From Rhodocyclaceae bacterium (GTDB lineage: Bacteria > Pseudomonadota > Gammaproteobacteria > Burkholderiales > Rhodocyclaceae), in NCBI GenBank assembly GCA_030689585.1, contig JAUYFZ010000248.1, positions 1-8,494 on the forward strand: a DNA stretch of 8,494 bases, in the 5' to 3' direction. How positions within the stretch are numbered: position 1 is the stretch's first letter; the number at the start of each line of letters is the position of its first letter. A program made the translations under genes and the position numbers. Positions 1,427 through 4,166 of this stretch are shown here, piece after piece. The notes under the pieces are model-generated. The model did not search any database, was not told the origin of the DNA, and saw only the letters and a list, made by a program, of their open reading frames with translations.

Positions 1427-1588
1427 CTTACAATAGCTTGACCAGAGTAGCAACGACACCTACAGCGACCACACCCGCCCAATTTAATCGTCCCAGCGAA
1501 ATACCAAACAGGGACAACTTCCAAGGATATATTTTCTATAAGACACGGCCTGTCAGTGCTCAGATGCCGGGCTTGTCCAACAAACGGC
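1427..1588. other. Intergenic stretch between tilS and the restriction-modification module
   Basis: Together with the following hairpin this is about 200 bp with no convincing complete gene. It holds the end of a short hydrophobic minus-strand frame (listed separately) and AT-rich tracts around 1526-1541. I see no T-run terminator after tilS and no promoter I would defend. Confidence 0.6.
1428..1535 (-). pseudogene. Possible C-terminal remnant of a membrane protein (start-less frame)
   Basis: On the minus strand an open frame runs from just after an in-frame TAG (1538-1536) to TAA (1430-1428), giving 35 residues. It has no ATG or GTG start. It ends in an unbroken hydrophobic run, LNWAGVVAVGVVATLVKLL, preceded by a basic, aromatic segment. 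This looks like the last transmembrane helix of a small membrane protein. Its stop lies 1 bp beyond the tilS stop, in convergent orientation. It may be the tail of a gene disrupted before or during insertion of the neighbouring restriction-modification module, or a chance frame. The family is not recognised. Confidence 0.25.
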
Positions 1589-1631
1589 TAGATCGTGGCT
1601 TCGCACGATCTAACCTTATTCGTTAGCTGCA
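1575..1631. repeat. attC-like site: imperfect inverted repeat with 9-bp hairpin at the border of the R-M module
   Basis: The centre is a perfect 9-bp stem, TAGATCGTG (1589-1597) and CACGATCTA (1604-1612), with a GCTTCG loop. Outside it lie GG (1586-1587) and CC (1614-1615), which can pair beyond a C/A mismatch, then AA and TT with one extra C (1585). At the ends are GTCCAAC (1575-1581), an exact match to the attC outer box RYYYAAC, and GTTAGCT (1622-1628), which fits GTTRRRY at six of seven positions. Read on the minus strand, the boxes are AGCTAAC and GTTGGAC, the latter an exact GTTRRRY. The endonuclease stop codon is 3 nt away, as is usual for an attC at the end of a cassette gene. Known attC sites are 57 bp or longer with two pairs of boxes, so this is at the short end. 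It could instead be a terminator hairpin, but no T-run follows on either strand. Confidence 0.5.
1621..1631 (-). repeat. 11-bp border inverted repeat, left copy
   Basis: CGTTAGCTGCA on the plus strand is the exact reverse complement of the sequence at 4144-4154. The two copies bracket the methyltransferase-endonuclease pair. This copy lies 3 nt past the endonuclease stop codon. Homology does not extend beyond the 11 bp, and no short direct repeat flanks the pair. Confidence 0.85.
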
Positions 1632-1634
1632 TTT

Positions 1635-2372
1635 TCATCCAAGTCTGGCAGCCTCTGCGGCAACGTGACCAGCCAGAGCGGTAACGAATGTTTTGAGTCC
1701 TGTCATCGCTGACATTTCTGAAAACTCGCCGGTCTCGGCAGCATTGCGGGGTGACGTGATGAGTACGGCAGTAGTGTAAAGCTGTTCCTTGACCAATTTC
1801 TGACAGAGCAAGTCATACCGGATGAGGTACGAAGCCCCTTTAAACTCCTTGAAAATAGGAAAATGCGGCGACGCATCCTTGACCGCACATCTGGATTTCG
1901 GGGCATCCTCGACCATCATCAACCAGCCAACGAAAGGACGCGGTTGCTTGCCGAATGCCTCTTCACGGTAGGCTGTCCAGAGGTCGTGTGCGGTGCCAAT
2001 GGCTTCCTCTGTTCGATTGTTGAAGTTGTTCCCGAACGAACCAACTTGGCTTTTCAGTTCGATGGCCGCGATCAACTCGCCCTTACAGATGACAAGAAGA
2101 TCCCAAAGCTTTGTCGGCCTGAAATAGCCGGGCAGTGTCAGCATTGCCTGGTTCTGGTAGATCTCAGCATGGGCGAGTCCATTGGCCCGCACGATGTCGA
2201 GTACCAAAGCCAAGAATCCGTCCATGTTCTTGCCAGCGGTAACGCCAGCACGCTCGCCTTGGTCAGCCTTCCCTGACTCAATCTGCTTTTGCCTCGCTGC
2301 CTCACGGTTTCCCCAGAAGGCTTTTACGGCCTCATGGGCCTTTTGTTCGTAATCGACAAGATCAAGGGCCAT
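1635..2372 (-). CDS. Type II restriction endonuclease, PaeR7I/XhoI family
   Basis: The protein has 245 residues, the length typical of PaeR7I-type enzymes. I recognise the family from MALDLVDYE at the start, AFWGNREAARQKQ, DQGERAGVT.GKNMDGFLALV, GYFRPTKLWDLL, NNFNNRTEEAIGTAHD and VGWLMMVEDAPKS. The likely PD-(D/E)XK nuclease site is D91 with E105-L-K107 in WDLLV...AAIELKSQVG. Known family members cut CTCGAG after the first C; shared specificity here is inferred. It would act on unmethylated incoming DNA, with the upstream methyltransferase protecting the host. Its ATG directly abuts the methyltransferase TAA (TAAATG), indicating coupled translation in the order M then R. A GGAGG lies 13 nt upstream (2386-2390), which is rather far, and AGAGA lies closer. 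The frame is intact, so the enzyme is probably active. Confidence 0.93.
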   Translation of the reverse strand: MALDLVDYEQKAHEAVKAFWGNREAARQKQIESGKADQGERAGVTAGKNMDGFLALVLDIVRANGLAHAEIYQNQAMLTLPGYFRPTKLWDLLVICKGELIAAIELKSQVGSFGNNFNNRTEEAIGTAHDLWTAYREEAFGKQPRPFVGWLMMVEDAPKSRCAVKDASPHFPIFKEFKGASYLIRYDLLCQKLVKEQLYTTAVLITSPRNAAETGEFSEMSAMTGLKTFVTALAGHVAAEAARLG

Positions 2373-4112
2373 TTATTCTCTATTGCCTCCAAGGGAAGAT
2401 CGTTCTTCGTGGCTCAAGCCATACAGTTTGAATACGGCGTGGTTGCAGGCTTGAAAATCCCGCTTTGTTGCAGCTTCCGCCAGCTCTGTCCGCAACGCTG
2501 TCGAGACATTCGCCCATTGGGGGATGCGGATGCGACGCAGGTATTGCGCCTGAAACCGGAGGAATCCGCCTTGCATTTTTGTTGAATAGGTTGCCATGAA
2601 TAGACGTGTGACGGCTGAAAGCATCACAGCTTGCAATGGCCTCAATTCCCACTCGTCGGATGTGACGTAGTAAAGATTGTGGTGCGGGTACAACTGACCG
2701 CCCTCAAAAACGATATGGGCCTCGCCCTTGATGTCGGGAATCAGGAGCTTCGGTCTTAATGCCAGTGTTGGGGTGATGCGATCGATCGTGCGAAACCAGT
2801 TGGCCGGAGTCTTCTGGGCGCAATGACGGCCCGCGATAGCCTCCCGTCGCGCCTCTAGGTAGCGGTGTAAGCGTGGATAGTTCCGCAGATCGACAAGGCC
2901 GCCACCCTCGGCAAACGGATTGATGACACCTTGACCGCGCCATCGTACCTCACCGGTCAAGATGTCTTTCGTTGTGACCAGCGGCAGCTTGCGATCAGGC
3001 TCAACGTCGAGTGCGTCAAAGTCACCGATATAGGCCTTGTCTGCGCCGGTTGCTACGCCGATACCCACCTTGCAGCCCGCCTCCTCCAAGCTCTGAAATT
3101 GCCTTTCAAGACGGCGAATCAGTGCCATTTGATCCGAAGATTCGAGCAGCCACGGTTCCGACCCATTGGTGACTCGTGCCAGTTCCCGCACCGGCCCGGC
3201 ATCTTTGGGCAAGTTTTTAGCACGCAGCGCGTCGGCCAAGATCGGCAGCGTGGCCCGATCGATGGCTGGGCGATGGGCAATGCGTGTTGCGCCGGGAGTT
3301 TCCCGGCTGATGATGGTGATGGCCGGGTAGGCGATCACATCGGAGTGAAACGCCGGGGTGTCCACCATATCGACATAGATTTTCAGATAGAACTGATCGG
3401 CCACGAGGCTACGAAGCGGCCCGCCATAGCGGTTTTTCATCCAGCGATCCGCGCAGATAAAGCCCAGATTGCCACCCTTCACCAACACAGAAAGCGATCT
3501 TTCAATGAAGGGGATGTAGATGTCGGCCCGGTCATACATCGTCTGGTAGCGGCCACGGTACTCAGCCAGCAATGGTGCTGGAATCAGTTCTTGGCGAACA
3601 TAGGGAGGGTTCCCGATAACAAAATCGAATTGCCCTTCAATTGGGGTGAGCAGAAAATCCCCTTGCACTAGCCAACGGTCAGCAAGTGCTATTGCAGATT
3701 GATCTTCTACCGCTTCTCGTTTGAGTAGCTCGATCACCGCTGCGCGGGTGATGAAAAAGGTATTGCGATGCAGTTCAGTAGCGCGAATTGCGTCGCCTAG
3801 TGTTTCAACTACAGTTCCTGCGTGTTGCGATAATTTCCACGCTGTCAGTAAACGTCCAATTGCAGGTAATAGAAAGTCACCGCCACCGAATGAAGGTTCT
3901 AAAAGTCGCTTTTCATGGAGCGGTTGATCCTTCGTGTAGCCAGCCAAATCGAGGATGAATTCCACTACCTCGGCGCGTGTAAAGACTGCCCCGCGAGATT
4001 CTGTTCCCGTTGACACAGACAATTTTTCAATTGCAGCGGCGACCATAGGTGAATGGGAGCAGACCGACTCGCCAAATAAATCAAAATTAAGCTGCCTTGA
4101 TCCCAAGTTCAC
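2373..4112 (-). CDS. DNA adenine-N6 methyltransferase of the PaeR7I/XhoI-like R-M system
   Basis: It protects CTCGAG-type sites by adenine methylation, if it shares PaeR7I specificity (inferred from the partner). It has 579 residues. Seen: FTRAEVVEFILDLAGY (about 44-59), an AdoMet-binding motif LEPSFGGGDFLLPAI (71-85), and catalytic motif IV GNPPYVRQE with NPPY at 168-171. A long C-terminal half follows, presumably including target recognition, ending in LYYVTSDEWELRPLQAVMLS and FRFQAQYLRRIRIP-like blocks. The motif order I then IV puts it in the same general class as type IIG/gamma adenine methyltransferases. The listed start is GTG 4112. An AGGGG (4114-4118) is too close to it but sits 7 nt before an in-frame TTG at 4106, so the true start may be that TTG. 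An in-frame TAG upstream excludes a longer protein. Complete and intact. Confidence 0.94.
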   Translation of the reverse strand: MNLGSRQLNFDLFGESVCSHSPMVAAAIEKLSVSTGTESRGAVFTRAEVVEFILDLAGYTKDQPLHEKRLLEPSFGGGDFLLPAIGRLLTAWKLSQHAGTVVETLGDAIRATELHRNTFFITRAAVIELLKREAVEDQSAIALADRWLVQGDFLLTPIEGQFDFVIGNPPYVRQELIPAPLLAEYRGRYQTMYDRADIYIPFIERSLSVLVKGGNLGFICADRWMKNRYGGPLRSLVADQFYLKIYVDMVDTPAFHSDVIAYPAITIISRETPGATRIAHRPAIDRATLPILADALRAKNLPKDAGPVRELARVTNGSEPWLLESSDQMALIRRLERQFQSLEEAGCKVGIGVATGADKAYIGDFDALDVEPDRKLPLVTTKDILTGEVRWRGQGVINPFAEGGGLVDLRNYPRLHRYLEARREAIAGRHCAQKTPANWFRTIDRITPTLALRPKLLIPDIKGEAHIVFEGGQLYPHHNLYYVTSDEWELRPLQAVMLSAVTRLFMATYSTKMQGGFLRFQAQYLRRIRIPQWANVSTALRTELAEAATKRDFQACNHAVFKLYGLSHEERSSLGGNRE

Positions 4113-4166
4113 ACCCCTATTTGATCTGCGCTCATCGCTCGGTTGCAGCTAACGTCTGAATCAAAT
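4113..4166 (-). other. Leader between rhlE stop and methyltransferase start
   Basis: These 54 bp contain the right border repeat and no recognisable controller-protein (C-box) operator or clear -35/-10 pair. If the module is a recent insertion, its transcription may rely on read-through from valS-rhlE, which lies immediately upstream in the same direction. Confidence 0.45.
4144..4154 (+). repeat. 11-bp border inverted repeat, right copy
   Basis: TGCAGCTAACG is the exact inverse of 1621-1631. On the minus strand it reads CGTTAGCTGCA, with a G/TT step suitable as an attC-type crossover. It lies 12 bp beyond the rhlE stop and 31 bp before the methyltransferase start. Confidence 0.85.

What the first reader, a model, noticed from the sequence alone, without database searches (positions are those of the whole stretch)
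1581..4152. A PaeR7I-like R-M system packaged like a solitary integron gene cassette
The methyltransferase-endonuclease pair is bracketed by an exact 11-bp inverted repeat, and the endonuclease end carries an attC-like hairpin. A rough estimate of an 11-bp inverted match by chance between two flanks of about 60 bp is below 1 in 500. On the minus strand the unit begins G/TTAGCT and ends with a hairpin whose outer box AGCTAAC is the exact complement. This is what a circularised cassette needs to rebuild attC. Genes and the proposed cassette direction agree, and non-coding DNA is minimal. R-M genes have been reported in integron cassettes, but a lone one between housekeeping genes with no integrase nearby would be unusual.
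Basis: partly seen in the sequence, partly recalled or inferred. Interest (0 to 1): 0.72.

Follow-up and report, generated by a model that had tools for sequence, protein, structure and literature searches.

The report
Restriction cassette capped by attC-hunting transposon
A DNA-cutting and DNA-protecting gene pair here is likely an integron gene cassette, and the hairpin at its end that looked like the cassette's own recombination site matches the end of an IS91-type transposon that likely jumped into that site, as related copies appear to have done in other bacteria.

Summary
In detail: an XhoI/PaeR7I-type endonuclease and an Eco57I-type methylase lie between an exact 11-bp inverted repeat, and a hairpin abuts one copy. 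The pair is very probably a gene cassette: its closest relative at hand (R 95%) has matching, co-varying ends and a canonical attC (54 bits) at the same position, and a Methylophaga relative sits inside an attC array. The host genome has an integron integrase and five canonical attC sites on other contigs. But the hairpin is not a canonical attC. A covariance model built from 32 array attC sites finds none there, and the same sequence recurs in related genomes (up to 95% identical) as the end of an IS91-family element (Y2 transposase), usually directly after a YAAC box like the R'' box of attC. In three copies the rest of a split attC follows the far end. In the window 135 bp of the element remain, so the cassette's attC is cut after R'' and it is probably immobile. 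The predicted empty site rests on the wrong junction. Whether the cassette lies in an eroded array or at a secondary site is open. The attC-seeking IS91 group is the more interesting result; two papers hint at it.

The parts
4147..4153 (-). Cassette start box GTTAGCT (G at 4153, crossover G|TT by integron convention)
   Evidence: complement of the R'' box; position-equivalent to GTTAGCG in L124 and L137
4154..4160 (-). TTCAGAC directly before the start box: resembles the spacer that precedes the R' box of array attC sites (possible remnant of an upstream attC)
   Evidence: 11 of 1570 background GTT sites score as high (a post hoc look); over 16 positions it does not look like attC (score -6.0, true sites 4.9 and up)
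2373..4112 (-). M: N6-adenine-type DNA methyltransferase, 579 aa, GTG start, motif NPPY (by eye)
   Evidence: Pfam Eco57I 4.2e-23; PDB BseCI methylase 1.8e-23
1635..2372 (-). R: XhoI/PaeR7I-family restriction endonuclease, 245 aa, intact frame
   Evidence: Pfam XhoI 1.8e-102; the 120 listed relatives are 86-94% identical
1622..1628 (-). R'' box AGCTAAC of the cassette's attC, 6 nt after the endonuclease stop; the rest of a canonical attC is absent
   Evidence: homologous to CGCTAAC of L124, where the canonical attC is intact
1487..1621 (+). Remnant (135 bp) of the ori (3') end of an IS91-family element; its terminus abuts the R'' box
   Evidence: 95% identical over 58 nt to the reference end, which is found in 28 of 399 order genomes, own included; alignment with 48 copies, one of them the window's own locus; own-genome copies on C237, C169, C9
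1586..1615 (.).
   Evidence: 90% or more conserved at most stem positions among the copies
1575..1581 (-). GTTGGAC box inside the element end: complement of GTCCAAC at the far end of several copies
   Evidence: Present in 39 of 52 copies, GTTGAAC in 3, not found in 10
461..1426 (+). tilS, flanking housekeeping gene
   Evidence: NCBIfam TIGR02432 165 bits
4167..5468 (-). rhlE, flanking gene; 13 bp between its stop codon and the start box
   Evidence: NCBIfam RhlE 646 bits, below its cut-off of 743

Best explanation
The window most likely holds a two-gene restriction-modification integron cassette whose attC site was probably cut right after its R'' box when an IS91-family transposon likely inserted there, and the hairpin beside the cassette matches that transposon's end. 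Shown: cassette boundaries, co-varying ends, canonical attC in the closest relatives, identity of the hairpin with IS91-type ends, and an insertion point directly 3' of YAAC in 45 of 52 copies. Inferred: the order of events (cassette first, then transposon, then loss of most of the transposon and of the other attC half on the tilS side). Inferred: target choice works by pairing. The element carries GTTGGAC at the foot of its hairpin, so an R'' box can pair with it as R'' pairs with R'. Predicted: the cassette can no longer be excised well by IntI, the R-M pair is still expressible, and it would cut and protect CTCGAG (specificity of XhoI/PaeR7I, recalled).
For: Cassette: L124 (R 95% identical) has R'' CGCTAAC 6 nt after the R stop, GTTAGCG 42 nt before M, and attC 54.4 bits. 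L137 has the same boxes (5 and 33 nt), attC 30.5 bits, inside an array whose next cassette shows GTTATGG...CCATAAC. Window against L124: last base pair of the boxes T:A against G:C, a compensatory change. The same genome has intI (498.8 bits, cut-off 265) and five attC of 32-62 bits. IS91 end: 52 distinct copies (window's own included), flank G-C-C-T|AAC; the complement of each box lies upstream within 3 kb in 21 of 51 against 4.1 expected. Y2 transposase similarity inside in 10 of 20 copies, two of these only 17-18 aa long. L294 and L295: identical 2449 bp at two places of one genome, protein Y2_Tnp 4e-38 plus Zn_Tnp_IS91 4e-24. Rest of a split attC after the far end in L285, L293, L246 (55.2, 43.1, 30.5 bits). 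attC hits run the same way as the element in 13 of 14 loci counted.
Against: The window's fragment has no transposase gene, and Pfam Y2_Tnp found nothing in the own genome, though that search rang in no control either; one exact far-end motif lies there, 54 bp from the end of its locus. Of 7 exact far ends, 4 are not followed by attC sequence. 30 of 51 copies lack the complementary box upstream within reach. Strict RYYYAAC fits 17 of 52 boxes, YAAC 45; copies whose match began past query base 4 were left out (7 of 83 hits), among them two that abut CAAG, so the AAC is partly selected. Most R-M relatives have no attC: 4 of 89 loci have one near R, and 0 of 13 in the host family. The start box is not a strict GTTRRRY.
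Confidence: 0.85

Rival explanations
1. One reading: an intact solitary cassette with a short, atypical attC (R'' AGCTAAC, hairpin, R' GTTGGAC).
For: Boxes and hairpin are in attC order and the minus strand folds well; my crude box-and-stem scan ranks it first in the window (30; next 28).
Against: No covariance match over the hairpin; no extrahelical base in the stem; hairpin plus about 20 bases behind it are conserved in dispersed copies with different upstream flanks.
Confidence: 0.06
2. The conserved hairpin is the attC of one common repeated cassette read in the opposite direction, not a transposon end.
For: In that direction its own R'' (GTCCAAC) is nearly constant and the following GTT box varies, as for a cassette's attC.
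Against: Neighbouring canonical attC sites run the other way in 13 of 14 loci counted; Y2 transposase genes and a defined far end; identical 2449-bp copies with no attC hit within the 6 kb fetched.
Confidence: 0.07
3. The R-M cassette entered by IntI at a secondary (attG-like) chromosomal site next to rhlE, rather than being the last survivor of an array.
For: Only 13 bp separate the rhlE stop from the start box; no other attC on the contig; attG insertion is described (Loot et al. 2024, seen only as a citation and in others' words).
Against: TTCAGAC before the box looks like an attC spacer (11 of 1570 background sites score as high) and occurs before GTTAG in two array sites of A2. The right-hand junction is lost and no empty site was found in relatives. 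Compatible with the best explanation; only the left junction differs.
Confidence: 0.42
4. The R-M pair is not a cassette and the repeat is coincidence.
For: Most relatives of the pair have no such ends.
Against: Chance 12 in 20,000; same boundaries with canonical attC in L124 and L137; what look like decayed versions at the same boundaries in L126 (GTTATCGGC ... TGCTAACAAATCGTTCC) and L125.
Confidence: 0.03

Closest known systems
R-M and other phage-defence genes in integron cassettes
   Same: Defence unit with cassette boundaries; defence systems including restriction-modification are reported in Xanthomonas cassette arrays (PMC12444791, passage seen).
   Different: Here it lies alone on its contig beside housekeeping genes, with its attC broken. 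No title listed for searches (1 of 1; 15 of 96 listed) reports a PaeR7I/XhoI pair as a cassette.
IS-linked movement of the PaeR7I R-M system
   Same: The same R-M type moved with an insertion sequence in E. coli in the laboratory (PMC3031569, title and start of abstract seen).
   Different: That is movement of a plasmid-borne system; here integron-type ends and an IS91-family end are involved, and no movement was observed.
SALIN / solitary attC cassettes, attG insertions
   Same: Single cassette away from intI; 115 such orphan cassettes reported in Shewanella (PMC9229058, passage seen).
   Different: Those were found by a detectable attC; this one's attC is disrupted and would probably be missed.
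IS1111-attC group and group IIC-attC introns
   Same: Mobile elements that target attC (passages seen; primary papers seen only as citations).
   Different: The element here is an IS91-family (Y2 HUH) element, sits right after R'' and appears to supply a new R''-like box to the rest of the attC.
IS91-like ISShvi3 and ISCR28 next to attC
   Different: In the passages seen no target rule is given; here 52 copies give a target logo and three show attC sequence behind the far end.

Membership tests
Integron gene cassette | Start box complementary to the R'' box of its own attC | tested here: met
   GTTAGCT / AGCTAAC, 7 of 7, extended to 11 bp; co-varies with L124 and L137
Integron gene cassette | Start box fits GTTRRRY | tested here: not met
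   GTTAGCT has C at the sixth position; GTTAGCG in L124 and L137, which have canonical attC, departs too. By eye, only 15 of the 32 array R'' boxes of A2 fit RYYYAAC strictly
Integron gene cassette | Canonical attC at the 3' end | tested here: not met
   No R1 match over the hairpin; met in the relatives L124 and L137. Hence: derived from a cassette, no longer a complete one
Integron gene cassette | Genes read toward the attC, little non-coding DNA | tested here: met
Integron gene cassette | Recombined by IntI | not testable with these tools
   Needs an assay; intI is present in the genome
XhoI/PaeR7I type II R-M | Endonuclease of Pfam XhoI beside an N6 methylase | tested here: met
XhoI/PaeR7I type II R-M | Cuts CTCGAG | not testable with these tools
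   Recalled specificity
IS91 family (the element that ends at 1621) | Y2 transposase with IS91 zinc domain in full copies | tested here: met
   L294:1701-2816, Y2_Tnp 131.6 bits and Zn_Tnp_IS91 84.8 bits
IS91 family (the element that ends at 1621) | Transposase gene in the window's own copy | tested here: not met
   Only 135 bp of the end remain
IS91 family (the element that ends at 1621) | Classical target GAAC or CAAG (recalled) | tested here: inconclusive
   YAAC in 45 of 52 copies; two copies of G019, L240 and L241, abut CAAG

The most novel reading that the evidence does not exclude
A group of IS91-family transposons finds integron attC sites because the box GTTGGAC beside its ori hairpin pairs with R'' (RYYYAAC) just as an attC's own R' does. 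It splits the attC and leaves an attC-like site at each end (R''-hairpin-GTTGGAC in front, GTCCAAC plus the rest of the attC behind). The insert thus becomes a transposon that is at the same time a cassette, and integrons and rolling-circle transposons can exchange genes such as this R-M pair.
Probability: 0.35. Interest if true: 0.78.

Novelty: new variant of a known kind. Interest (0 to 1): 0.58.

Why it matters
It suggests how a defence cassette can be frozen in a chromosome: a transposon that prefers cassette recombination sites removes its exit. If the pairing rule is right, it gives a simple sequence reason why an IS91-type element gathers at attC sites, adds a further family to those known to attack integrons, and warns that hairpins beside complementary boxes can pass for attC. 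It also makes testable whether integrase can move IS91 elements as cassettes.

Tried and rejected
Empty-site test: in G001 tilS is followed by a clpB-like gene (by eye) and rhlE lies about 313 kb away, so no relative examined shows the uninterrupted locus. Rfam search of 1400-4400: no family at E up to 1. Search of plasmids for the hairpin region: none. Pattern GTTGGAC in the own genome: too common to use (123 matches). PWM of 16 bases before the start box: not attC-like; only the last 7 are, a post hoc look. RAYT (Y1) as the owner of the hairpin: a Y1 gene follows it in L246, but among the 20 copies Y2 similarity occurs in 10 and Y1 in 2, so RAYT is taken as a passenger. No structure prediction was run. 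The PDB has no sequence relative of the endonuclease or of the Y2 transposase. R1 was built only from array sites of the host's family; a broader attC model was not available, so 'no match' means none under this model.
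Full report
Observation. The window is a whole contig (C278) of an unnamed 1.7-Mb, 79% complete genome. The host family includes a MAG that its record calls Rhodocyclaceae: contig G002:C32 has the same length (167,574) as that of L128. Gene order: accA' and tilS (+), then on the minus strand valS, rhlE, methylase M, endonuclease R. 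The 11-bp inverted repeat is exact and unlikely by chance (12 of 20,000 resampled flank pairs). The hairpin folds well on the minus strand.

The R-M pair as a cassette. The closest of these, L124 (R 95%, M 86%), carries R'' CGCTAAC 6 nt after R and GTTAGCG 42 nt before M; the window has AGCTAAC 6 nt after and GTTAGCT 41 nt before. In L124 a canonical attC of 54.4 bits follows. L137 (Methylophaga) has the same boxes (5 and 33 nt) and a 30.5-bit attC in an array: its next cassette starts GTTATGG and ends CCATAAC. Window and L124 differ at the last box position by a compensatory change (T:A against G:C). L126 and L125 look like decayed versions with the same boundaries. Against: only 4 of 89 loci (L124, L137, L142, L146) have an attC hit at E below 0.03 within about 105 nt of R, and 0 of 13 further copies in the host family have one (best hit 12.3 bits, E 0.99; 13 fetched of 19 non-own genomes found among 297). 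The pair is usually not a cassette; the window's lineage is.

The host's integron. intI scores 498.8 bits (cut-off 265) on contig C2. Five attC sites of 32-62 bits lie on C237, C290 (two), C217 and C223. In the family 63 of 101 genomes, own included, have intI above the cut-off.

The attC model. From regions upstream of 20 intI genes I took attC candidates whose R'' is the exact complement of the R' of another candidate 200-3500 bases upstream (93, some false or on the wrong strand), chose 32 of canonical length by eye, aligned them (A2) and built model R1. On the window, with filters off, the best of 14 matches up to E 10 is 9.1 bits (E 0.68) at 1608-1628, a 21-base match that skips most model positions; no match covers the hairpin as an attC.

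What the hairpin is. Searching 1427-1632 in 101 family genomes gave hits at E of 1e-6 or less in 13 genomes, own included. G095 alone has eight matches, at least five of them at a contig end; in the own genome it matches C237, C169 and C9. Most printed copies continue past the hairpin with related sequence, while the sequence before it differs and ends in a YAAC box. A 79-base query found the end in 28 of 399 order genomes (two candidates per genome were scored). Fifty-two distinct copies, the window's own included, give a flank of G (31), C (26), C (38), T (38) before AAC; YAAC fits 45 of 52 and strict RYYYAAC 17 of 52. Seven of 83 hits that began past query base 4 had been left out, so the constancy of AAC is partly a matter of selection. 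The complement of each copy's box lies 150-3000 bases upstream in 21 of 51 copies against 4.1 expected from the boxes of other copies; the window's own counted as a miss there because too little flank was held.

The owner of the end. In the 20 copies fetched with flanks, similarity to an IS91-type Y2 transposase occurs behind the hairpin in 10 (in L283 and L288 over only 17-18 aa) and to its companion tyrosine recombinase in 5; two of those without a match had under 260 bases of interior. L294 and L295 are identical for 2449 bases in one genome with different flanks. Their 371-aa protein matches Y2_Tnp (131.6 bits) and Zn_Tnp_IS91 (84.8 bits), and a second gene matches Phage_integrase. The gene reads toward the hairpin, so the hairpin is the 3' (ori) end. 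The far end reads GCGGCTTCGT[CT]CAAC; among 33 copies with 1200 bases or more inside, seven show it exactly and three more with up to 3 mismatches. In three of the seven (L285, L293, L246) the other half of an attC follows, and the model then scores a full attC (55.2, 43.1, 30.5 bits) whose R'' is supplied by the element. In L285 the target box GCCGAAC and the R' box GTTCGGC behind the far end are exact complements, as expected of one attC split in two. In four of seven (L284, L266, L294, L295) no attC follows. attC hits near copies run in the element's direction in 13 of 14 loci counted. The own genome holds the far-end motif once exactly, 54 bases from the end of the fetched locus, so a copy probably lies in an unassembled stretch.

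Reading of the window. On the minus strand: rhlE stop, ATTTGATTCAGAC, GTTAGCT (cassette start), M, R, AGCTAAC (R''), then GAATAAGG... which is the transposon end. The element diverges from the own-genome copies at 1486/1487, so 135 bases remain, and 60 bases of unknown origin follow before tilS. The attC of the cassette is thus cut after R''. The left junction is open: TTCAGAC before the start box looks like an attC spacer (11 of 1570 background sites score as high), but the 16-base stretch does not. An eroded array and a secondary-site insertion are about equally likely.

Mechanism, inferred. The element carries GTTGGAC beside its hairpin (39 of 52 copies, GTTGAAC in 3, not found in 10) and GTCCAAC or GTTCAAC at its far end. 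HUH transposases of the IS200/IS605 type choose targets by pairing with a guide near the hairpin (recalled); here the guide would have the integron core consensus, which would explain the choice of R''. That the two new ends look like attC sites follows from the sequence in L285, L293 and L246; that IntI uses them is untested.

Literature. Searches covered open-access PMC papers only. Of nine papers I saw passages, of the rest listings and abstract starts. ISShvi3, an IS91-like element beside an attC that forms a new cassette structure, is in a paper that found no IS interrupting attC (PMC9229058); ISCR28 has attC at its end, data not shown (PMC12772301); some IS1111-type elements target attC (PMC11187229). 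No listed title or abstract start, and no passage opened, describes an IS91 group with R'' as target; subscription papers were not searched.

Noticed in passing
L124:3323-4205: Directly upstream of the R-M cassette in the closest relative lie two small genes that look, by eye, like a SLATT-type membrane protein and a TIR-like protein: possibly a second defence unit beside the first.
   Followed up: no
L235 (G000:C9) about 5000-6200: ParA-like gene (AAA_31) with GTTAGAG at its start and CTCTAAC at its end, followed by the same IS91-type end, which is itself cut by another sequence: a second cassette of this genome capped in the same way.
   Followed up: partly
L232:1492-1547 and L247:913-960: Stand-alone palindromes made of the same hairpin, with an AAC box on one side and a GTT box on the other; they look like attC sites built from the transposon end.
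   Followed up: partly
L246:1811-2467: A Y1 (IS200-like, RAYT-type) transposase gene sits between the two ends of a 770-bp IS91-type copy, as if carried as cargo.
   Followed up: partly
L240, L241: Two copies in one genome abut CAAG, the classical IS91 target (recalled), instead of the YAAC box.
   Followed up: partly
L284, L266: Copies of only about 370-440 bp with both ends: probable non-autonomous (MITE-like) forms.
   Followed up: no
window 1427-1486: Between tilS and the transposon remnant; the minus strand reads as the last 20 or so residues of a hydrophobic protein (NWAGVVAVGVVATLVKLL). Origin unknown.
   Followed up: no
window 8258-8340: GGCTCTATGCGGTTTGTAGTGGGT at 8258 recurs twice on C237, once right behind its IS91-type fragment (L234), and on C209 beside the far-end motif (L336); a CTCCCCTTCAAGGGGAGG-type palindrome follows, as in long runs at L006 (C2) 1-240. 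High-copy repeats of this genome.
   Followed up: partly
window 1-8240: accA-tilS is kept in the 10 relatives examined, but tilS-rhlE and rhlE-valS adjacency was not seen in the stretches held: the locus has probably been rearranged in this genome.
   Followed up: partly
L146, L147 (cyanobacteria): R-M relatives (75-76% R) with an ATCTAAC box 6 nt after R and an attC-like sequence (30.6 bits in L146; no model hit in L147): cassette capture may have happened more than once.
   Followed up: partly
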